Shown here: positions 2,667 to 12,361 of the stretch, piece after piece
Numbering within the stretch: the first letter of the stretch is position 1
How the letters are laid out: each line of letters opens with the position of its first letter
Source: a virus
Reading direction: 5' to 3' (one strand)
Length of the DNA: 22,993 bases
Virus record (IMG/VR): IMGVR_UViG_3300021963_000685
Span: 1-22,993 of that record
Translations under genes and position numbers: made by a program
Notes under the pieces: generated by a model
What the model was told of the DNA's origin: nothing
Databases searched by the model: none
Seen by the model: only the letters and a program-made list of their open reading frames with translations

Positions 2667-2975
2667 ATGTTACCAGCTTCTCTAAGTATTATTGGCAGAG
2701 AAGTGCCGATTAGAGTTGTAGATGTATTCCCAGAACAACTGGGAGAGTACAACTATGATGATTATGCAATTAAAATAAAGTCTGGTCAGCACCCCTTAGC
2801 GGAGGCAGATACATTGTTACATGAATGTATACACGCTATAGACGACTGCTTCCAATTAAAACTGTCAGAGAGGCAGGTGTATTGTTTAGCTGTAGGAGTG
2901 TTAGCACTACTTAGAGATAACAGAAATATGCTTGCCTATTTAACTGAAGCAATAGAGAAACCAAGAAACATATGA
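2667..2975 (+). CDS. Small HExxH (zincin-like) putative metallopeptidase (102 aa)
   Basis: The central motif LLHECIHAIDD places HECIH at residues 52-56, a zinc-binding and catalytic HExxH, flanked by hydrophobic helix residues. The region before it (REVPIRVVDVF...GEYNYDDYAIKIK) is a beta-rich stretch like the strands that precede the HExxH helix in ImmA/IrrE-type small peptidases. The third zinc ligand is not obvious; Glu68 or later acidic residues are possible. AAAGG at 2656-2660 is 6 nt before the ATG. The gene lies first after the putative promoter and its stop overlaps the next ATG (ATGA), so it may be made with the virion proteins. The substrate is unknown: virion maturation, antitoxin or repressor cleavage, or an inactive fold are all possible. 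Confidence 0.75.
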   Translation: MLPASLSIIGREVPIRVVDVFPEQLGEYNYDDYAIKIKSGQHPLAEADTLLHECIHAIDDCFQLKLSERQVYCLAVGVLALLRDNRNMLAYLTEAIEKPRNI

Positions 2976-5287
2976 AAGATTTTACATCACAGCAAAAAGA
3001 AGTCGTAGCTAGAAAGCTAGGCTACGATGGTCCTATGCAAGGCTTTGATGAATTCATTGCATCCTCTCCTTCACTAGAAGCTAAGTATGCTGCCATCACT
3101 GGTAAGTTTTCTCAGCGTATGGCTAATGGTGGCTTGGTTAAGATGAAGCCCAGAGGCTTTCCGGCTGGAGGATATGTAACGACAGAAGCCCCAAAATATA
3201 CAGATGAACAAATAGCTTCTTGGTGGAGTAATCCCGCAAACCAAGCGTTAAGTGATGGTCAGATTAAAGCAATTATGCTTCAGGAGGGTGTTAGTCCTGA
3301 GCAGTTTGCTAGGTCTATTGGTGCTAATGAAGAGACTGCTGCTGATATTAATGCTAGGTATCAAGTTGCTACACCAGAAGAATCAACACAAGCAGTACCT
3401 CCAACAACTGTACCTCCAACAACTGTACCACCAATAACAACTACACCAGCACCAACTACAACTGTACCACGAACAACAGCACCTATTACAACTAGACCAG
3501 TTACTACAGTACCTCCTACAACTAGACCAATTACTACAGCTCCTATTACAACAATTCCCGGTACTACAAGAGCACCGGGTGTGACCCTGTCTCCAGCAGA
3601 TGCAGCAGCGGCCTTGACTAGTAGAACCGCTGCAACACAGACTGGTGGAGGTGTTACTTTCTCAGCTACAGGTGTTCCTCAGGCTGGTGATGCTGCTCAA
3701 GTAGGTACGATTGCTACTATTGATTCTACTGAAGCTCAGAAGATTGGTACAGAAGAAAGAGCTGGAACTGTAAGTACTATTGAAGGAACTACTCCCGCTA
3801 CTGCTACATTAGCAGCTCTTCCTACCACACTGACAGCAGATCAAATGACAGCAACTGCTGCTGCTCCCGGCTTAGCCACTGCTCTTTCTACTGTTACTCC
3901 TGCAGATGGCACATTATCCGAAGCTGCCAAAGTAGATGCAGAAGAACTTTGGACAACTGCTTTAACTGCTGCTAGAGAAAAGGTTCCTCAGATTGACACT
4001 GCTCAAAAAGTAGCGGTGGTTCCAGAGAGAACTCTACTTACAGGTGAGACTGTTGCTGGGTCTGCTGTTGATATGACTAAGGTGGCTACAGAGCTTGCTA
4101 AAGCTGAAGCTGCACAAGGAACTGTCACTGAAGACATGACTGTACAGGGTCAGCTTGCTAAGCTTACTAAAAACTTTGATGCTACCAATCCCCCATCTTG
4201 GGCTGCTGGTGCATTGAGAGCAGTGACAGCAGAGATGGCTGCTAGGGGCTTAGGTGCTTCTAGCTTGGCTGGTGCTGCTTTGGTGCAAGCTGCTATGGAG
4301 AAGGCTCTTCCTATTGCTTCTGCTGATGCTGCTATATATCAACAATTTGCTTCACAGAATCTGTCTAACAGACAACAGATAGCTGTTCTTACAGCACAAC
4401 AAAGAGCTACCTTCTTAGGTCAAGAGTTTGACCAGAACTTCCAGACCCGTGTTGTTAACGCTGCCCGTGTTGCTGACATTGCCAACTTAAACTTCAATGC
4501 TAAACAGCAAGTGGCTTTAGAGAATTCTAGACTAGCTCAGTCTGTAGACTTAGCTAATCTGAATAGCAGACAAGCTGCTTTCATGGCTGAGCTTGCACAG
4601 ACAGCTACACTTGAAACAGCTAGTTTAAATAACAGACAGCAAGCTGCTGTTGTTAATGCTCAGGCTGCTTTGCAGATTGATTTGACCAACATGTCTTATG
4701 AACAACAAACAACTGTTCTTAAAGCACAACTAACAGCACAGGCTATTTTGTCTGATGCTGCTGCTGAGAATGCTGCTAAACAGTTTAATGCTACTAGTGC
4801 AAATCAAACAAAGCAATTCTTTGCTACTCTCTCTTCACAAGTGAGTCAGTTTAATTCTGCACAGAGTAATGGTATGGAACAATTTAAAGTTGACCAAGCA
4901 AACTCTGTTAAGAAGTTTAATGCTGAAGTTACTAATCAAAGAGAACAATTCAATGCACAGCAACGATTGGTGATTGATCAATCTAATGCTCAATGGCAAA
5001 GAGAAATTTCTACAGCTAACACAGCAGCCACTAATTTAGTAAATCTACAGAATGCTCAGCTCTCACAGCAGATGTCATTGACAGAATATAATAATGAGAT
5101 ACAGATGTATCGTGATGCTGTAACACATGCTTGGCAGTCTGCTGAGAATGATGCTAACAGAGCAACCACTCTTGCTGCTTCAGAGATTTCTGCTGCTGCT
5201 GCAATTCAAGGTGCAAATATTAAAGCAGATGGGGATAGCTCAGCAGCTATTGGTGGATTTATTGCCCGTGTTCTAATTGGTAAGTAA
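2972..5287 (+). CDS. Large repetitive helical virion/ejection protein (771 aa)
   Basis: This is a probable internal virion or ejection protein, by analogy with the long helical proteins next to lysis genes in aquatic podoviruses; no enzymatic motif was seen. In order: a short N-terminal domain, the Gly motif ANGGLVKMKPRGFPAGGYV (about 51-69), a small helical segment ending in QEGVSPEQFARSIGAN, a Pro/Thr-only linker (142-202), a Thr/Ala-rich middle (203-400), then about 360 residues of continuous helix rich in Gln, Asn and Ala. The helix holds a 22-residue repeat (about 463-580) and a strict 11-residue Phe repeat (603-661). The C-terminus GGFIARVLIG is hydrophobic and Gly-containing. The low-complexity Pro/Thr region and long coil argue for an extended structural part. 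A tail-needle or fibre role is the alternative. Confidence 0.85.
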   Translation: MKDFTSQQKEVVARKLGYDGPMQGFDEFIASSPSLEAKYAAITGKFSQRMANGGLVKMKPRGFPAGGYVTTEAPKYTDEQIASWWSNPANQALSDGQIKAIMLQEGVSPEQFARSIGANEETAADINARYQVATPEESTQAVPPTTVPPTTVPPITTTPAPTTTVPRTTAPITTRPVTTVPPTTRPITTAPITTIPGTTRAPGVTLSPADAAAALTSRTAATQTGGGVTFSATGVPQAGDAAQVGTIATIDSTEAQKIGTEERAGTVSTIEGTTPATATLAALPTTLTADQMTATAAAPGLATALSTVTPADGTLSEAAKVDAEELWTTALTAAREKVPQIDTAQKVAVVPERTLLTGETVAGSAVDMTKVATELAKAEAAQGTVTEDMTVQGQLAKLTKNFDATNPPSWAAGALRAVTAEMAARGLGASSLAGAALVQAAMEKALPIASADAAIYQQFASQNLSNRQQIAVLTAQQRATFLGQEFDQNFQTRVVNAARVADIANLNFNAKQQVALENSRLAQSVDLANLNSRQAAFMAELAQTATLETASLNNRQQAAVVNAQAALQIDLTNMSYEQQTTVLKAQLTAQAILSDAAAENAAKQFNATSANQTKQFFATLSSQVSQFNSAQSNGMEQFKVDQANSVKKFNAEVTNQREQFNAQQRLVIDQSNAQWQREISTANTAATNLVNLQNAQLSQQMSLTEYNNEIQMYRDAVTHAWQSAENDANRATTLAASEISAAAAIQGANIKADGDSSAAIGGFIARVLIGK
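3395..3577 (+). repeat. Pro/Thr-rich repeat (PPTT-type) within the 771 aa protein
   Basis: Residues 142-202 are almost only Pro and Thr with spaced Val, Ile, Ala and Arg, built from units like VPPTT, TRPITT and APITT. The DNA shows near-tandem copies of cctccaacaactgta at 3399-3428 and looser copies after it. The composition predicts an extended, unstructured, mucin-like linker joining the N-terminal part to the helical body. Confidence 0.85.
4358..4711 (+). repeat. 22-residue protein repeat (N[L/F]x[N/S][R/K]QQxA)
   Basis: Copies begin at residues 463 (NLSNRQQIA), 507 (NFNAKQQVA), 529 (NLNSRQAA), 551 (SLNNRQQAA) and 573 (NMSYEQQ). All fall on a 22-residue register, with a degenerate copy at 485. 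Twenty-two is two hendecads, pointing to a long amphipathic or right-handed coiled helix. The DNA copies are diverged, so this is an old protein-level repeat. Confidence 0.75.
4778..4954 (+). repeat. 11-residue (hendecad) Phe repeat, six copies
   Basis: Phe occupies residues 605, 616, 627, 638, 649 and 660, exactly every 11 residues. Each usually has Gln or Lys before it and often Asn after it (KQFN, KQFF, SQFN, EQFK, KKFN, EQFN). This is a textbook hendecad pattern for a right-handed or straight coiled coil. It directly follows the 22-residue repeat region. Confidence 0.85.
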
Positions 5288-5503: not shown

Positions 5504-5963
5504 TATTTTATTTACTGCACCTATCCCCGGTCAATCATTAACGATTGAGCCGGGTAGTGGTCCTTGGGAGCAGCCTCCTCAGTATGTCACTGTAGATGAT
5601 GTAGCTTCTTTCTATTCTGATAAGCTGGACAATCCAGAGGCTATCTTTGAGTTGATGTCTTTGCTTGAGAAGGGCATACCCATTCTTACTATTGTTAATA
5701 CAATGGTGAAGACATCTATCATGAAGGGCTATCACACTGTTGATACAGGTTTCTTAGTTACACCAATCATTGTAGAAATTATTAAGACAATAGCAGATTT
5801 GAATGATGTTATGTACACAGTAACTGCTGAAGATGCTGGTAAGAAAAACACTGTAAGCCCTGCAATCATTAAACAATTGATTGATGAAGCAAAGAAAAAA
5901 GTAGAGAAGAATCCTGAAGCTATTGTAGAGCGTAAAGGTTTAATGGCTAAAGGAGTAGCATAA
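5493..5963 (+). CDS. Conserved phage virion-region protein, PIPGxSL type (156 aa)
   Basis: The N-terminus DDILFTAPIPGQSLTIEPGS followed by GPWEQPPQY is a pattern I recall at the start of a small protein family common in marine tailed phages, next to virion genes. The rest is helical, with a hydrophobic stretch around 60-105 (IPILTIVNTMV; VTPIIVEIIKTIADLN) and a Lys/Glu-rich C-terminus (KKKVEKNPEAIVERKGLMA). GGAG 7 nt before the ATG supports the start. The stop overlaps the next ATG as TAATG. The biochemical role is unknown; a structural or assembly role is inferred from its neighbours. The hydrophobic stretches look more like a buried core than TM segments. Confidence 0.8.
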   Translation: MTDDILFTAPIPGQSLTIEPGSGPWEQPPQYVTVDDVASFYSDKLDNPEAIFELMSLLEKGIPILTIVNTMVKTSIMKGYHTVDTGFLVTPIIVEIIKTIADLNDVMYTVTAEDAGKKNTVSPAIIKQLIDEAKKKVEKNPEAIVERKGLMAKGVA

Positions 5964-7366
5964 TGGCATTTAGACTTAGTTCATTTCTTGGTGGTGCAGC
6001 TAAAGGTGCAACAGACTTAATCGAAGAGAGAGAAAAAGAGAATGCTCTTCAGATTAAAGAGAGTATTAAAAACATGTACCACAACTATGCTGAGTACAGA
6101 AAAGAAACAGATAAGAAGAAAGAAGAGATTAGAGAAACAGTAGGTTCTCTTCGTTCCTTTAAATTTGCTGATGGTCCTTTAGATGAGAAGGAGCTTATTG
6201 CTCTTGCTTCTGATTTACCAACAGCTAAATCTATTGCTGAAGAATTTAGAAAGAATCCTGAGAAGCTTGAAGGGTTGTCTAAGTCATTCATTAAAGCAAC
6301 AGGTAACATACCTGAAGGCATGACCTTCAATGACTATGTTAATCAGTATGGCAAAGTGGCTAAGATGGATGCTACTGAGTTTGAACAAGCTGCTGCTGGT
6401 AAACAAGATGGCTTCTTAAATAAGATGGTGTATGGTAATAATGTAACTAAGATTAGAAACGCTGCTGCTAAGTATGGTGTTAGTGCTGAAGAGTTATACA
6501 ACGTAGGTGCAGCTAAGGGTTCTAAGTCATTTCCAGCACTTCTTGAAGTTGACTATGCTAAGCTTAAAGACAAACCAGACTTTAAGAAAATTGAGTCTGA
6601 TGCACAGGTTGCTATGCTCACTGCTAGACAAACTGGTACAGAAGAAGATCAAGCTAAAGCTGCTGCCAACTTAGGCCACATTACATTCATTAAAGAATAT
6701 GGTGATAAGAAAGATAAGACACAAAACATAATTGAAGCTGATTATGCTAACAAAGTTATCAAGCTACAAAAAGAAGGTAAGCCTAAGGAAGCTGCTGAAA
6801 TGGAAGCTGAGCTTAAAAGATGGCAGAAGCTTGTGGCTAATCCTGCTACGGCTGCTAAGACAGATGCTGATAAGATTTCTCAGGCCAACCTAATTACTGC
6901 TGCATCTAGAACAATGGTGTCTACGATGTCTAACTACCTACCACCCGGTAGCTTCATTACAACGTCTAATTCAGATGGTACAACTAACATTGAAGTTAAA
7001 GACTTGGCCTCCTCAGACAAGGCAGCTAAAGGCTACGTTGCTGGTAGAGAAGTGCTGATTAAAGAGATGACTACCAACGGCAAGCCTAGATCTGAGATGC
7101 ATAAGAATGCTTTGTTATCTGCTGGTGTTCAGTTTGATAAAGATGGTAATGCTGTTAATCCTAAGATTCAGTATGGTGGTGAAGCACCTGCTCCAGCGGC
7201 AGCAGCAACACAAACACCAAGACCAAGGGGTGGTCCTATGGCTAGGCCAACAGCACCAGTGGATACAGCTAAGGCAAGATCAGAAGCTAATGCAGCCATT
7301 GCTAATGGGGCAGATAGAGCAGCAGTGGCTGCACGTTTTAAACAACAGACAGGACAGGATCTCTAA
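5963..7366 (+). CDS. Helical internal-virion-type protein (467 aa)
   Basis: The N-terminus LSSFLGGAAKGATDLIEERE is a short Gly-rich amphipathic helix leading into a highly charged coiled coil (20-60). Several hundred residues of mostly helical sequence without catalytic motifs follow. A Pro/Ala linker (about 405-430, APAPAAAATQTPRPRGGPMA) and a compact C-terminal helix-turn-helix-like tail (ANAAIANGADRAAVAARF) end the protein. The start overlaps the previous stop (TAATG) and the next ATG follows its stop directly. Size, helicity and position between two larger helical proteins suggest an ejected internal core protein, analogous in role to T7 gp14-gp16. There is no detectable motif for peptidoglycan cleavage. 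Confidence 0.8.
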   Translation: MAFRLSSFLGGAAKGATDLIEEREKENALQIKESIKNMYHNYAEYRKETDKKKEEIRETVGSLRSFKFADGPLDEKELIALASDLPTAKSIAEEFRKNPEKLEGLSKSFIKATGNIPEGMTFNDYVNQYGKVAKMDATEFEQAAAGKQDGFLNKMVYGNNVTKIRNAAAKYGVSAEELYNVGAAKGSKSFPALLEVDYAKLKDKPDFKKIESDAQVAMLTARQTGTEEDQAKAAANLGHITFIKEYGDKKDKTQNIIEADYANKVIKLQKEGKPKEAAEMEAELKRWQKLVANPATAAKTDADKISQANLITAASRTMVSTMSNYLPPGSFITTSNSDGTTNIEVKDLASSDKAAKGYVAGREVLIKEMTTNGKPRSEMHKNALLSAGVQFDKDGNAVNPKIQYGGEAPAPAAAATQTPRPRGGPMARPTAPVDTAKARSEANAAIANGADRAAVAARFKQQTGQDL

Positions 7367-10300
7367 ATGGGAATGTTTGATGACTTAATCCCCACTAAAA
7401 CTAGTGGTGGTATGTTTGATGATTTAATTCCAACAAAGCTTACGCCTCAGCAAATGGAGGCTAAGGTTGTTCAGCCTCCCACAGAAGCTGAGCTTAAGGA
7501 TGCAGAGAAACCTGCCATCATCACCAAACAACTCATGCCTAGACAGGCTAAGATTGAGGAAGCAAAAAAGAAAAGCTTAGAAACCACCATTCCTTTTGAA
7601 GACCTGTATAAAAATCCAGAACTGTTTGGTGTTATTAAAGACTACATGAAAGTTAGTCGTAATGTTGTTCCTGAGAAGGGTCAATCAGACGAAGACTTTG
7701 TTAAGAAGTACATGGCAACAATGAGGGATATTGAATTCAATACCTTCACTGGTGCTCTTCCTGAACTAAACAGAATCCGTAATGCTAAGCCTGAAGATGC
7801 TCAGACATTGGGACTGGGTAGAGAACTGTATAAACAAACACGAAGCGTATTCCAACCCGGTGGTCAAGGCTATGGCAGTGCTGATGCTTTAGTTCCTTAT
7901 TGGAATGCAATGGCATCTATTGCTACAGACCCATTAAACTATGTTGGGTTTGTTGGAGGTAAGATTGGTGGACAGGTTGTTAAATTAACTGCTGCTCAAG
8001 AAGCTGCACAGCTTGCTCTTGGAGCTGCTTCTAAAGGTAAGCTTGCTTCCATCCTCACACCAACTAAAGGCAAAGTAGTTGCTGGAGTTGCTGGTTTAGA
8101 AGCTGCATCAGGAGCAGGTCAAAGTGTTGTTAGCCAACGCTTAGATCAAGAAGTTGCTAAGAGTATTGGTCAAGAGCCGGAAGAACTCAGCACAACACAG
8201 ATAGCTGTTAGCGGAATTATCAGTGGACTCTTTGGTGGGTTAGAGGCTAAAGCTGCTATGACTAAGTTTGGTAAGACTGGTAAAGAACAGCTTGCTGACT
8301 TACTTAAGAAGTCTAAAGAGAAAACACCAACAGATCCAACTGCTCCACCCACTAAGGTAGAGACAGCTTTGTTATCTCCTGTTGATGAGAACATGGACCT
8401 ACTTGCTGAAGAGTTTATGAAGCAAGAGGGTGCTAAGGTATTAGATCAAATCTCTCCTGCTGCTGCTTTGGTAGAGCCAGCTATCCGTAGAGACTTATCA
8501 CAGAGAGCTATTCGTGTGGCTTTGAATGTGATTGAGAATGATCCTACCTACAAGGTTAAAGCAGGACAGAAGACCAGTACAGCTATTGCTGAAGTGTTCT
8601 CTGCTATGGACCAAGGTCTTATTGATGACACCCTGTTAGAGCAAGCCATTAGAAAAGAAGGACTGAGTCCTGAACAGTTTGCCCAAGCTAACAGAGTGAC
8701 AGTGACACAAGCTGCTCAGATTATGCAGCAATACTCTACGGCTTCTAAGGCTTTGAATCGTCTGCGTCAAATTGATCCAGATGTTGCTAAGCAAGTGGAT
8801 GCTTTGTATGGTGCGCCTGATGAATATACATCCACCCTTGGCTACTTAGGTGGTGCATTCAACCGCCTTGAAAGAGAAAGTAAAGCCCTCATCGTCAGCG
8901 GTATTGGCACTACTGTTCGTAACATTATGGGCAGTGGTATTGGTTTGACATTCAACTCAGCAGCTTCTGTTATTGAAGGCTCGTTGATGACCATAGGAAA
9001 GACACTAGCACCAGAAGCTAAAGGTGCTAGACTTAACACACTGAAGACAAGCATTGGTGACACCATTGAGAATGCCTTTGGTACATGGGGCTACTTGCGT
9101 AAGAATGATTTAGCCTCTGAAGTAACTGATGAGTTGCTCAAACATAACCCATCCATTAGAAGCCACATCCTTTCTGCTATGCAAGAGAGTGATACAGACC
9201 TGTCTAAGGTGGCTCGTATGGCTAATGCTCTTAATGTGGCACAGGATGCTTTCTTTAGGAAGGCCATCTTTGCTAACTCAGTGGAGAAGAAGCTTAAGGG
9301 TGTTGGCTTAGATATGTATGAGCTAATAGCTGATGGTAAAGTTATCCCTGCTGACATCCTTAAAGAAGCAGCAGATGAAACATTAAAAGCTACCTTCTCT
9401 TACACACCTAAAATACCTAAGGGTGGTATTAAGACATTCGAAGGTGGTGCTGAGGCGATGGGTAACTACTTTGTTAAAGCAGCAGAGGTTCCCGGTGGTA
9501 GCTTGTTTGTTACCTTCCCTCGCTTCATGACCAATGCCATTGCATTCCAATATCGTTATAGCCCATTGGGTGGTATTGCTGGAGCAGAAGACATTCTTAG
9601 AGGTTCTAAGATGTTAGCCAATGGTGATGAGACAGGTGCTGCTCTCATCAGAAAAGGTCAAGAGAACACAGCTAAGGGTATTGTAGGTACATCAGCTTTG
9701 CTTGCTGCCATTGACTATCGTGAGAACAATCAGGATGTTGAGTGGAACATGTGGAAAAGAGGTGATGGTACTACAGTGGACATGCGTGGCATCTTCCCAA
9801 TTGGTCCTTTGTTAGCTATGGCTGATGTATCAGTGAAGCAAAAGCGTGGCTTGTCTGCTAAGACTGGTGATGCCTTTGAAGCTGTCATTGGTATGAAGAT
9901 GCCAGCAGGTACACAGAACCAATTCATGGACCAACTCATCTCTGCTCTTTCTTCAGAGAGGGATGTAGAGAAGTGGGCTGATAAGATGGGTAAAGTGATT
10001 GGTGATTTTGGTGCTAGGTTTGTATCACCCTTCATCGTCAAAGACATCTTCAACCTTGTTGATTTGATTCGTGAAGGTGGCTCTGTTGCTAGAGATCCTA
10101 ATGTACTTAAATCAGAGAAACCAGCAGATAGAATGTTAGAAGCTGCAGGTAATAGAATTCAATCTAAGCTTCCTGTGTTGAAGGAAGAACTACCTGAAAC
10201 TATCCCCCGTGTTAGACAAGGACCAATATATAAAGAAGGTGAATTCTTTAACAACTTAGTTGGTATTCGTATCACACCAGAGAAGACACCAGAAGAAACT

Positions 10301-12361
10301 GAACTGGTCTACCTTGGTATTGAAACATACAAACTGTTTGGTCAACCATCAGGTGATAAAGAATATGACAGGGCTTATGTAGAAGAAGCTAATCCATTAG
10401 TGATTGCTACCATTCAAAGAGCAATGCTCAGTCCTCGCTATCAATCCTTACCTGAGATTGAACAGAAACAAGCCATTGAGAATGTAGTTAAGAACATTCT
10501 TCCAGTGGCTAGACAGCTCACTGATGCTAAGTTTATGCAGGAAGATTTAAATCGTGTGTACAAGATGAAGTTTAACAAACTCACTGAAGACACACGCAAG
10601 ATTATTAATAATAGATATGCTGCTGAGAATAATGGTAAGACATTAGAAGAAACCAATGACTACATGAGAGTACCTGAGTATGCTGCTAAGATTAAAGATC
10701 TTCAGTTTGCTAAGGGTGGATTTCTTGCTGGAAAGATTGCCACAGCAGGAGCTAAAGCTGCTACTACAGGAGGCACTGAGGGAATGCTTAACCTTATTAG
10801 AAAGGTTAAAAATCCTGAAGCTATTGTTGCCAATGAAATTAACAATGTTGTTGAAGATGCTTTAAATAAAGCAGACTTAACAACTAAAGCAATTCCTACT
10901 AAGCCTGTTGCTAAAGCTAAGAGCACACCTCCAGTAGAAGAGGCTGCTCCAATTGCTAAGCAAATGGAAGAAGCCATCCCTGAAGCTGTGCCAACAAAGA
11001 TTGAAGAGCCACTGCCTGAGATTAAAACAGAATTGCCACCACCAGAGCCTTCTATCTACACTACACCCATTGCCACTACAAATTTAAATAAACCTGCCTT
11101 TGGTTTTGATGAAGAGACTAGGAAGTCTACACTGTCTAGTATTAAAGTGCTTAGACAAGAAGCATTTGCTGCTGTTAAAGATGCTCCTGAGTTTGCGGGT
11201 ATTGACCCAAGTGCTATTGCTGTAGCTCAAGGTGAATATAGAATTAAGACAGGCAGGGAGCTTAATGCTGATAGCCCTACAGATGTTACAGCCTTTGCTG
11301 AGTTTGCTCAGGGGTTCCAAAAGAAACTAGAAGATCTGAGAGAGCAATATAAAGACAAGCCACCAAAGATATTGATTCATGGCACAGAGACAGAGCGAAC
11401 ACCTGCTAAAGTTAAGCGTGGTTTCTATGATCCTCAAACAATGGAAAGTAAGAAACACATGGAACTAGATGTAGGGGCTACATCTTTCACCAGTGATCTA
11501 CGATTGAACTACAGGGATGATGCCTTTGGTGGTCCAGTTGTTAAGAACATTTCTTACACTGAGATTCCATATGCTGACTATATGTTCAGAAGAGTGAACA
11601 TGCCATTATCAGCATACAGTAAGAAGGACATGAACACCATTGCTAGAACCATCACTGGTGATCCAACAGTGGCTAGGCCGCTAAGCCTTCCTCGTAGCTT
11701 AGGCTACAGAGAAACTGAAGATGCTTTTGTGGAGAGTGAAAAACTCAAGATACAAACTGATTTCAATAAAGTTGAAAAACAATATGGCTTAATTGAGCAA
11801 CAAGAAACTAATAGAAAAAGACTGACTAATAAATTATTAGATGTTGTTAACAAGACAGATAAAGATGGTCTTACTTTAATTGATAATATCAGAGCATCCA
11901 CTGAAAAACCTAAAGAGGTTTATGAAACATACACCACCATTAAGGGATTGTTTAAGAATGAGTTTAGACATACAGGTGGCAAGGCTGCTACAAAAGATGG
12001 TAAGCTTCCAGTAACAGACAGCAATCAAACATTTATTAGTGCATTAAATAAACTGGCTAAGACAACCACTGTAGATACTATTGATGCAGTCTCTCTTTCT
12101 TTAGAAAGATCTGGAGCTAAAGATAAAGCACTAGCTTTAAAAGAGCTTAGTAAGAATCTAAAGACAATTCAGACAGTACCAACATATATACCATCAGGTT
12201 CAACACCAGCAGATATAGCTGACATGATTGCTACACAAACTAAAGCCGCTAATAATATTAGAGACTTAATTGGTAATGACTTTAAGATTGTTGATCCAGC
12301 CAACCCTAGTAACACCAAGAGAATTGGCTTAGCTAGGGGTGGCCTCGCAAGCCGTAGGTAA
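7367..12361 (+). CDS. Giant internal virion/ejection protein with C-terminal ART-like region (1664 aa)
   Basis: At 1664 aa this is the largest gene, of the size and place of T7 gp16-type ejected core proteins. Order of parts: a duplicated GMFDDLIPTK motif at residues 2-24; a Lys/Glu-rich spacer; a core (about 60-1110) with the segments ELFGVIKDYM, GSADALVPYWNAMASIATDP and, at 717-723, FPRFMTN followed by the YRYSPLGG segment. I recall the last pattern as conserved in giant proteins of aquatic phages. Then come an FAKGG motif at 1114-1118, a Pro/Glu linker (about 1175-1240), a helical region, a possible ADP-ribosyltransferase-like region (about 1335-1460), and a helical C-terminus ending in LARGGLASRR. 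No lysozyme motif was found. It starts directly after the previous stop; a second in-frame ATG lies 6 nt on. Its end overlaps the convergent gene by 33 bp. Confidence 0.88.
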   Translation: MGMFDDLIPTKTSGGMFDDLIPTKLTPQQMEAKVVQPPTEAELKDAEKPAIITKQLMPRQAKIEEAKKKSLETTIPFEDLYKNPELFGVIKDYMKVSRNVVPEKGQSDEDFVKKYMATMRDIEFNTFTGALPELNRIRNAKPEDAQTLGLGRELYKQTRSVFQPGGQGYGSADALVPYWNAMASIATDPLNYVGFVGGKIGGQVVKLTAAQEAAQLALGAASKGKLASILTPTKGKVVAGVAGLEAASGAGQSVVSQRLDQEVAKSIGQEPEELSTTQIAVSGIISGLFGGLEAKAAMTKFGKTGKEQLADLLKKSKEKTPTDPTAPPTKVETALLSPVDENMDLLAEEFMKQEGAKVLDQISPAAALVEPAIRRDLSQRAIRVALNVIENDPTYKVKAGQKTSTAIAEVFSAMDQGLIDDTLLEQAIRKEGLSPEQFAQANRVTVTQAAQIMQQYSTASKALNRLRQIDPDVAKQVDALYGAPDEYTSTLGYLGGAFNRLERESKALIVSGIGTTVRNIMGSGIGLTFNSAASVIEGSLMTIGKTLAPEAKGARLNTLKTSIGDTIENAFGTWGYLRKNDLASEVTDELLKHNPSIRSHILSAMQESDTDLSKVARMANALNVAQDAFFRKAIFANSVEKKLKGVGLDMYELIADGKVIPADILKEAADETLKATFSYTPKIPKGGIKTFEGGAEAMGNYFVKAAEVPGGSLFVTFPRFMTNAIAFQYRYSPLGGIAGAEDILRGSKMLANGDETGAALIRKGQENTAKGIVGTSALLAAIDYRENNQDVEWNMWKRGDGTTVDMRGIFPIGPLLAMADVSVKQKRGLSAKTGDAFEAVIGMKMPAGTQNQFMDQLISALSSERDVEKWADKMGKVIGDFGARFVSPFIVKDIFNLVDLIREGGSVARDPNVLKSEKPADRMLEAAGNRIQSKLPVLKEELPETIPRVRQGPIYKEGEFFNNLVGIRITPEKTPEETELVYLGIETYKLFGQPSGDKEYDRAYVEEANPLVIATIQRAMLSPRYQSLPEIEQKQAIENVVKNILPVARQLTDAKFMQEDLNRVYKMKFNKLTEDTRKIINNRYAAENNGKTLEETNDYMRVPEYAAKIKDLQFAKGGFLAGKIATAGAKAATTGGTEGMLNLIRKVKNPEAIVANEINNVVEDALNKADLTTKAIPTKPVAKAKSTPPVEEAAPIAKQMEEAIPEAVPTKIEEPLPEIKTELPPPEPSIYTTPIATTNLNKPAFGFDEETRKSTLSSIKVLRQEAFAAVKDAPEFAGIDPSAIAVAQGEYRIKTGRELNADSPTDVTAFAEFAQGFQKKLEDLREQYKDKPPKILIHGTETERTPAKVKRGFYDPQTMESKKHMELDVGATSFTSDLRLNYRDDAFGGPVVKNISYTEIPYADYMFRRVNMPLSAYSKKDMNTIARTITGDPTVARPLSLPRSLGYRETEDAFVESEKLKIQTDFNKVEKQYGLIEQQETNRKRLTNKLLDVVNKTDKDGLTLIDNIRASTEKPKEVYETYTTIKGLFKNEFRHTGGKAATKDGKLPVTDSNQTFISALNKLAKTTTVDTIDAVSLSLERSGAKDKALALKELSKNLKTIQTVPTYIPSGSTPADIADMIATQTKAANNIRDLIGNDFKIVDPANPSNTKRIGLARGGLASRR
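7370..7438 (+). repeat. Tandem GMFDDLIPTK motif with synonymous divergence
   Basis: Residues 2-11 and 15-24 of the giant protein are identical (GMFDDLIPTK), separated by TSG. The two coding copies differ at the third base of six of ten codons and at no other base. An identical peptide with scrambled synonymous sites implies selection on the peptide. Position suggests a docking or packaging tag at the N-terminus. Confidence 0.9.
11369..11746 (+). other. Possible ADP-ribosyltransferase-like region in the giant protein
   Basis: Residues about 1335-1460 contain, in order, LIHGTET (His1338), then GFYDP, then GATSFTSD (Ser1373-Asp1377), then IPYADYMF, and finally YRETEDAFVESEKLKI with Glu1449, Glu1451 and Glu1456. 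A His-Gly-Thr strand, a later Ser/Thr-rich strand and a C-terminal Glu before a short strand is the order of the conserved elements in ADP-ribosyltransferase folds. T4 Alt is a precedent for an ART carried in a virion. This is a motif-level inference without a structure search. A structural domain with chance similarity remains possible. Confidence 0.4.

What the first reader, a model, noticed from the sequence alone, without database searches (positions are those of the whole stretch)
11369..11746. ADP-ribosyltransferase-like region inside a giant probable ejection protein
The 1664 aa virion-type protein has, after a Pro/Glu linker, the ordered elements LIHGT (His1338), GATSFTSD (1371-1377) and a late Glu cluster (1449-1456) before a short strand. 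This is the element order of ART folds. Established knowledge: T4 Alt shows that ARTs can be injected with DNA to modify the host RNA polymerase. Inference: this phage may carry a host-modifying enzyme as a domain of its ejection apparatus, delivering it at the moment of infection.
Basis: partly seen in the sequence, partly recalled or inferred. Interest (0 to 1): 0.7.

Follow-up and report, generated by a model that had tools for sequence, protein, structure and literature searches.

The report
Phage ejection protein carrying ADP-ribosyltransferase cargo
A giant protein that this aquatic virus of bacteria probably pushes into the cell together with its DNA ends in what looks like a previously unnamed enzyme domain of the ADP-ribosyltransferase type, which could chemically tag host molecules at the very start of infection.

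Summary
In detail: residues 1336-1340, 1370-1377 and 1449-1458 of the 1664-aa ORF (7367-12361) carry the motifs. AlphaFold2 gives a confident domain (pLDDT 90.7). All 50 PDB rows shown by Foldseek and all 50 by VIA-align are ADP-ribosyltransferase (ART) folds, though each match is modest (best E 0.019, best Z 6.1). His1338, Ser1373, Thr1375, Glu1449, Glu1451 and Glu1456 are invariant in 89 of 89 distinct relatives. No curated ART model detects it beyond E 0.17. The ART is a detachable module ending the virion operon: among 80 relatives of the ejection-type body it is fused in 35, a separate adjacent gene in 11, absent in 25 and undeterminable in 9. Bodies and modules recombine (96% body with 53% ART; 34% with 93%). 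I read it as ejected cargo of a new ART family with a His, Ser-x-Thr, Glu-x-Glu pattern that fits none of the three named clades. Not shown: catalysis, NAD+ binding, presence in virions, entry into the host, or the target. Injected phage ARTs and ART-bearing polyvalent proteins are known, so this is a new variant of a known kind.

The parts
7367..12361 (+). 1664-aa giant virion-operon protein: N-terminal short repeats, helical ejection/polyvalent-type body, linker, ART module
7367..7438 (+). N-terminal tandem short acidic motif (GMFDDLIPTK twice within residues 1-24); its sequence is exchanged between relatives but a 2-3 fold repeat is often kept
7544..10711 (+). ejection/polyvalent-type body, residues 60-1115, predicted almost all helical (low confidence, pLDDT 57.8); relatives without ART end about here
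10706..10723 (+). internal FAKGGF motif (residues 1114-1119) at the body/ART-module junction; resembles the C-terminal motif
10889..11071 (+). Pro/Glu-rich linker, residues about 1175-1235
11111..11347 (+). three-helix N-terminal part of the ART domain (residues 1249-1327)
   Evidence: helices 14-35, 46-60, 69-92 of the model
11357..11746 (+). ART-fold core, residues about 1331-1460
11378..11380 (+). His1338 (strand 1 of the model, residues 1334-1339); 89 of 89
11483..11491 (+). Ser1373-Phe1374-Thr1375 (strand 1372-1375); 89 of 89
11711..11719 (+). Glu1449-x-Glu1451 (strand 1451-1454); 89 of 89; Asp1452 beside it is 84 of 89
11732..11734 (+). Glu1456, 89 of 89; possible further acidic residue
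12329..12358 (+). C-terminal LARGGLASRR motif; this kind of tail ends nearly all fused and separate ART-module proteins listed
5963..7366 (+). 467-aa protein directly upstream, probable second internal virion protein (inference from position)
   Evidence: (PHROG matches no better than E 0.45)
2972..5287 (+). 771-aa protein of the same operon, with a MANGGLVKM stretch near its N-terminus

Best explanation
The C-terminal ~540 residues of the 1664-aa protein are a cargo module centred on a catalytically intact ADP-ribosyltransferase of an unnamed family. The module is attached to (or, in relatives, encoded directly behind) a polyvalent/internal-virion-type body. Proposed working, step by step. 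(1) The protein is made late, as the last product of the virion operon: gene order shown, timing inferred. (2) It is built into the particle and leaves it with the DNA: inferred from the body's kinship to large polyvalent proteins and from position. (3) In the cell the ART binds NAD+ through the His1338/Ser1373 side and uses Glu1451 (with Glu1449) to transfer ADP-ribose: inferred from fold and invariant residues. (4) A host macromolecule, most likely a protein, is modified to favour early phage expression or blunt defence: inferred by analogy with T4 Alt. Host RNA polymerase is one candidate, since no T7-type RNA polymerase was found in eight relatives of 55-59 kb. The module varies between clades (fused, separate, absent) and recombines as a unit.
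For: Confident model, pLDDT 90.7, pTM 0.86. All 50 Foldseek PDB rows shown (of 235 with E<=10) are ART-superfamily chains (tankyrases/PARP4, diphtheria-type and exotoxin-A-type toxins, RES toxins), best E 0.019. VIA-align, on chains preselected by Foldseek: all 50 rows shown are ART, Z 6.1 down to 4.2. Range offsets put His1338 on the residue number I recall for the strand-1 His in three toxin families (inference; assumes no gap). Profile comparison: KptA score 33.9 (E 1e-4, probability 58%, 22 columns) and ART-PolyVal 22.9 (E 0.01, probability 4%, 11 columns), the His in register, against at most 15.9 for 26 decoy segments. Invariant residues 89/89. Purifying selection. Module fused 35, separate 11, absent 25, undetermined 9 of 80. 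Discordant body and ART identities. Body matches large-polyvalent-protein entries. T7-type RNA polymerase in 0 of 8 relatives of 55-59 kb and not in G001, with phage T7 ringing as positive control.
Against: No Foldseek match under E 1e-3 in the PDB, and Z below 8 can reflect a common arrangement. No significant hit to a curated ART family. Profile matches cover only strand 1. No Tyr in strand 2, so the configuration is unusual. The body model is poor (pLDDT 57.8) and its match to named internal virion proteins is weak (E 0.06, probability 0.11). All 25 ART-less bodies are the more distant ones (38-43% identity), so gain or loss within the close clade is not shown. The RNA polymerase profile also missed the N4-type polymerases of record W03, so other RNA polymerase types are not excluded. 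No proteomic, biochemical or target evidence.
Confidence: 0.6

Rival explanations
1. ART fold, but the substrate is not a host protein: it works on RNA, DNA or small molecules (KptA-like repair, NADase, or countering NAD-based defence signals).
For: The best profile-profile match is KptA, and a KptA-labelled family is the only ART name among the weak PHROG hits (2 of 19 members, E 0.17; 2 of 42, E 0.19). The strand-2 residue is not the Tyr of H-Y-[EDQ] ARTs.
Against: The KptA match is confined to 22 columns around the HG motif. The invariant E-x-E is, as I recall, a mark of macromolecule-modifying ARTs rather than of the H-H-h clade (clade names: PMC9503650 passages).
Confidence: 0.17
2. The ART acts in the producing cell late in infection (assembly, lysis timing or superinfection exclusion) and is not delivered.
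For: In 11 of 80 loci the ART is a separate gene, so it does not need to be joined to the body; it lies at the end of the late operon.
Against: It is fused to the body in 35 of 80, fused and separate forms mostly share the same kind of C-terminal tail, and body relatives are polyvalent-type proteins.
Confidence: 0.14
3. The domain keeps the fold but is a structural or binding module without catalysis.
For: An unusual active-site combination; further 89-of-89 residues outside the motifs (E1366, G1389, P1401, Y1402, G1431, K1459) could mean a binding surface.
Against: Invariance of His, Ser/Thr and Glu at the putative catalytic positions in 89 of 89.
Confidence: 0.07
4. The region is not an ART; the resemblance is a chance arrangement of a mixed alpha/beta domain.
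For: Modest scores.
Against: All 50 rows shown in each of two lists belong to one superfamily, with the motif residues on predicted strands.
Confidence: 0.05

Closest known systems
ART domains of phage polyvalent proteins (Tox-ART-HYD2 / N4-ART; Pfam ART-PolyVal PF18760), prototype Roseovarius Plymouth podovirus 1 vRNAP
   Same: An ART domain in a giant protein of a podovirus, proposed to be injected with DNA (PMC5512222 passages); similar [YF]HG strand-1 motif
   Different: The active site there is reported as H-Y-D; here the strand-2 residues are S-F-T and the late strand has E-x-E. No PF18760 match for this domain, while the control ART in RPP1 is found. A different carrier body, without RNA polymerase
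T4 Alt (Alt/VIP2, R-S-E clade)
   Same: Precedent for an ART packaged in the head and injected to modify host RNA polymerase (PMC5512222 passages); Ser and Glu as in R-S-E
   Different: Strand-1 residue is Arg in R-S-E, His here in 89/89; [quoted passage not shown]
KptA/Tpt1 RNA 2'-phosphotransferase (H-H-h clade)
   Same: Best profile-profile score, PPxxLYHGT region
   Different: Only 22 columns align; strand 2 has Ser, not His; the five phage KptAs used here are small solo genes
Bodies of HMO-2011-like podophages (CRP-603 gp44; Podoviridae sp. ctYwJ313)
   Same: Same gene order and related body
   Different: No ART module in those two proteins by HMM or in the two whole records

Membership tests
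ART superfamily | ART fold | tested here: met
   AF2 pLDDT 90.7; all 50 shown rows ART in Foldseek PDB (best E 0.019) and in VIA-align (Z 4.2-6.1). Individually modest scores
ART superfamily | conserved strand-1 His/Arg, strand-2 residue and late acidic residue | tested here: met
   H1338, S1373, E1449/E1451 invariant in 89/89 and at or beside predicted strands
ART superfamily | residues arranged in an NAD+ pocket; NAD+-dependent transfer | not testable with these tools
   no model coordinates, no assay
Tox-ART-HYD2 / ART-PolyVal (PF18760) | match to the family profile | tested here: not met
   no PF18760 match at E<=1 in the window or in 42 members; positive controls found
Tox-ART-HYD2 / ART-PolyVal (PF18760) | Tyr in strand 2 | tested here: not met
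   strand 1372-1375 has no Tyr: S, F, T at 1373-1375 in 89/89 and T/P/S/I at 1372 in 68/68. Of 9 ART-PolyVal sequences aligned here, 4 have [YF]FT and 5 have H-[IF]-G-T at the comparable place, so Tyr is not universal among them either
Tox-ART-HYD2 / ART-PolyVal (PF18760) | Asp in strand 5 | tested here: inconclusive
   E1451 is 89/89 but D1452 next to it is 84/89; no superposition to say which faces NAD+
R-S-E clade (T4 Alt/VIP2) | Arg in strand 1 | tested here: not met
   His in 89/89
R-S-E clade (T4 Alt/VIP2) | Ser in strand 2 and Glu late | tested here: met
   S1373, E1449/E1451 in 89/89; equivalence by motif position
KptA/Tpt1 (H-H-h) | second His in strand 2 | tested here: not met
   no His at 1372-1375
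Polyvalent (ejected multidomain) proteins | giant protein with a large-polyvalent-protein-associated domain | tested here: inconclusive
   Foldseek hits to entries so labelled, but from a pLDDT 57.8 model; no Pfam LPD match in P0001 or in 6 relatives
Polyvalent (ejected multidomain) proteins | packaged in the virion and injected | not testable with these tools
   needs virion proteomics / translocation assay

The most novel reading that the evidence does not exclude
The domain founds a separate ART class with a hybrid active site (strand-1 His as in H-Y-[EDQ], strand-2 Ser and E-x-E as in R-S-E), found so far only in viral records of the collections searched. Aquatic podophages attach it to, encode it beside, or leave it off their ejection proteins as exchangeable cargo aimed at host-specific targets.
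Probability: 0.3. Interest if true: 0.72.

Novelty: new variant of a known kind. Interest (0 to 1): 0.57.

Why it matters
A survey of viral proteomes found ARTs in only 3% of siphoviruses and podoviruses (PMC9503650 passages). No significant ART model of Pfam, PHROGs, NCBIfam or PADLOC matched the members scanned here, so surveys built on known families would undercount injected enzymes in these aquatic phages. The fused, separate and absent states of one module at one locus give a natural series for testing whether covalent linkage to the ejection body is needed for delivery. The hybrid motif bears on how the ART clades diverged.

Tried and rejected
Sequence-only searches for a known family gave no significant ART match: Pfam, PHROGs, PDB sequences, NCBIfam and PADLOC. 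The best matches of any kind were weak and not ART: phrog_37572 E 0.0014 in 1 of 42 members and phrog_19272 E 0.0075 in 7 of 42, both of unknown function; Pfam YceG_bac E 0.0021 in 7 of 19 (in the window row it lies on the helical stretch behind the ART core); phrog_23943 E 0.0043 at residues 1544-1636. The first search with a Pfam ART family in the window's own record found nothing, and its controls did not ring either, so it is uninformative. tblastn of the domain against phage isolates found no relative; the only row was a KptA at E 0.7. None in plasmids (one distant member as query), none confirmed in GTDB genomes (21 pattern matches).

Programmed frameshifting between body and separate ART gene was considered. 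Rejected for L080/L081/L086, where the ART has its own ATG behind an AGGA box. For L011/L087 the open frames overlap by a few bases and a TTG start is the likeliest reading, but frameshifting is not excluded.

The hhalign run carried a mis-given option and is superseded. Fold of the body: pLDDT 57.8, so its matches are only supportive. HTVC103P gp52, a giant protein at a similar position in a Pelagibacter phage, was checked as an isolate model: it matches neither the ART nor the body profile. First T7-type RNA polymerase search had no ringing control; a second with phage T7 rang there. VIA-align did not list some ART families; that is no evidence against kinship with them. On checking, I lowered the novel case from 0.35 to 0.30, because 5 of 9 ART-PolyVal sequences have no [YF]FT and Asp1452 is nearly invariant beside Glu1451.
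Full report
What is there. The window is a 22,993-base virus record. The plus strand carries lysis genes (spanin and endolysin PHROG matches) and large virion-type proteins up to 12361. The minus strand carries replication and nucleotide genes: RNR, exonuclease, DNA polymerase and primase/helicase are PHROG matches; ThyX, an HNH-type endonuclease and a single-strand-binding-type protein are my reading of the ORFs. The finding lies near the end of the last plus-strand gene of that series, a 1664-aa ORF at 7367-12361.

Relatives. Close relatives came from viral contigs, then 113 with a profile, of which the tool kept 80. Domain alignments: A1, 19 rows, and A2, 42 rows chosen from 105. After the body search the set grew to 146 ORF rows and 89 distinct segments, short segments dropped. 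L1336, H1338, G1339, S1373, F1374, T1375, D1377, E1449, E1451, E1456 and K1459 are 89 of 89. Positions 1340 and 1450 vary. One search pattern contained the SFT stretch, so its invariance is partly built in; His and Glu were in no pattern, and the body scan used other parts of the protein. dN/dS for the ART part is 0 to 0.12 over seven pairs; for the C-terminal tail it is 0.11 to 0.20.

Fold. AlphaFold2 on A2 gives pLDDT 90.7, pTM 0.86: three N-terminal helices, then strands 1334-1339 (with His1338), 1372-1375 (TSFT), 1395-1400, 1438-1441 and 1451-1454 (starting at Glu1451). Foldseek against the PDB has no match under E 1e-3 and a best E of 0.019, but every one of the 50 rows shown (of 235 with E up to 10) is an ART-superfamily chain: tankyrases, PARP4, diphtheria-type and exotoxin-A-type toxins, and RES toxins. 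VIA-align, a second look at Foldseek's own candidates, puts diphtheria-type catalytic domains first (Z 6.1, 135 residues, 4.0 A), then exotoxin A, cholix, ParT, RES and tankyrase, Z 4.2 to 6.1 in the 50 rows shown. The tool warns that Z below 8 can be a common arrangement. The unanimity of both lists is what convinces me, not any single score. The first aligned positions place His1338 at the strand-1 His of three toxin families, if no gap intervenes; those residue numbers are recalled. In BFVD the one match under E 1e-3 is a 45% identical uncultured-phage protein labelled only as 'large polyvalent protein associated domain-containing'; ranks 2 and 3 are a viral PARP-like protein and a phage NAD+ ADP-ribosyltransferase, at E 0.025 and 0.04.

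Profile comparison. The core of A2 against profiles built here scores 33.9 (E 1e-4, probability 58%) for KptA (5 sequences) and 22.9 (E 0.01, probability 4%) for ART-PolyVal (9 sequences). 26 decoy segments from other window frames and their homologues, some of them spurious antisense frames, reach at most 15.9. Both ART matches cover only the HG motif region (22 and 11 columns).

Which ART. Published clades are H-H-h, H-Y-[EDQ] and R-S-E (PMC9503650, passages). ARTs of polyvalent proteins are reported as H-Y-D and T4 Alt as R-S-E (PMC5512222, passages). Here strand 1 has His, strand 2 has S-F-T, and the late strand follows E-x-E. Of the 9 ART-PolyVal sequences I aligned, 4 have [YF]FT and 5 have H-[IF]-G-T at the comparable place, so the comparison with them is less clean than the clade name suggests. 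Asp1452 (84 of 89) could also be the acidic residue. By motif reading the pattern is a hybrid H-S-E. That rests on motif position, not on a residue-level superposition, which I could not make.

Architecture. Body relatives were sought with a 28-row body alignment (A3): 339 found, best 80 kept, so close ones are favoured. ART state among these 80: fused 35, separate gene directly downstream 11, absent with at least 2.5 kb seen downstream 25, undetermined at contig ends 7, body end not held 2. The 25 ART-less bodies are all among the more distant ones, 38-43% identical to the window body, so the states differ between clades; recent gain or loss within the close clade is not shown. The separate state occurs both in bodies at 50-54% and at 36-39% identity. 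Where the ART is absent the body ends within 18 residues of the profile end; in the 20 absent loci I listed, the frames over 200 aa in the next 2.5 kb are on the opposite strand. In L080/L081/L086 the separate ART gene starts with ATG behind AGGA, 2 bases after the upstream stop codon. ART and body identities disagree: against the window, L013 has body 96% and ART 53%, L016 93% and 47%, L002 34% and 93%, L008 33% and 89% (50 distinct proteins of 1580 aa or more, the window among them, shorter ones left out). This is what a swappable cargo module looks like.

Carrier. The body model is poor (pLDDT 57.8) and almost all helical. Even so its two best BFVD matches are proteins labelled large polyvalent protein associated domain, and a 'PolyVal ADP-ribosyltransferase' protein is at rank 17. 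Named internal virion proteins appear only at E 0.06 and worse. Gene order agrees with Roseobacter phage CRP-603 and Podoviridae sp. ctYwJ313, whose corresponding proteins match the body profile (E 2e-47 and 9e-88) but lack the ART. A paper on HMO-2011-type phages names an internal virion protein D in a figure legend (PMC6918029, passages); I did not establish that it is this gene.

A second ART. One relative (G008, the contig of L104) has an ART-PolyVal protein (PF18760, E 4.7e-18) just downstream of a portal-like gene (portal is my reading). It ends with the same kind of GGL-RR tail. Contig 3300020161_000055 carries the window-type ART (L041) and an 87% identical relative of that ART-PolyVal stretch (L121). 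So at least two members of this phage group carry two different ART types.

Working model. ART cargo, fused to or encoded next to an ejection-type protein, delivered at infection, using NAD+ to modify a host molecule. Eight relatives of 55-59 kb gave no T7-type RNA polymerase (0 of 11 records), nor did the 45-kb relative G001; phage T7 was found as control, and a terminase profile rang in 10 of 10 records. The profile did not ring in the N4-type record W03, so other polymerase types are not excluded, and record completeness is not given. Dependence on host RNA polymerase makes an Alt-like target attractive, but there is no direct evidence for any target.

Literature. Searches for ART together with ejection protein (4 papers) or internal virion protein (2 papers), and for three of four terms ART/podovirus/metagenom/polyvalent (69 papers, 12 listed), showed no title or abstract start describing an ART domain in such a protein of this phage group; I judged these from listings only and opened none of them except PMC5512222 and PMC9503650 (passages). 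The general idea of injected phage ARTs is well established there.

Noticed in passing
window 12329-12358; also 10706-10723 and the 771-aa protein at 2972-5287: A [LF]x[KR]GG[LF]xxRR-like tail ends nearly all ART-module proteins, fused or separate. Similar GG motifs sit at the body/ART junction and at about residue 58 of the open frame of the 771-aa operon protein. 212 occurrences in 758 ORFs against 37.6 in shuffled ORFs; of 97 C-terminal ones 93 are in ART-bearing ORFs and 4 in body proteins without a fused ART (overlapping loci of one contig are counted more than once). Possible processing or packaging signal.
   Followed up: partly
window 7367-7438: The N-terminus carries 2-3 tandem copies of a short acidic motif whose sequence is swapped between relatives (FDDLIP, IKFLDDE/IKFTD, FGINDK, EFDLF/EFSSF, YADLIP). 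Pelagibacter phage HTVC103P gp52 and Podoviridae ctYwJ313 show analogous repeats.
   Followed up: partly
L113 1288-3042 (contig of L104): ART-PolyVal protein just downstream of a portal-like gene, with a C-terminal GGL-RR style tail; the same contig also has the window-type ART.
   Followed up: partly
L010/L173: In this relative the body is split into two ORFs (368 and 1380 aa) near residue 370; not examined for frameshift or sequencing error.
   Followed up: no
window 2667-2975: 102-aa protein with a PHROG match of unknown function (phrog_1233, E 1.4e-9) and an HExxH-like stretch (HECIH), between the endolysin and the large virion-type proteins.
   Followed up: no
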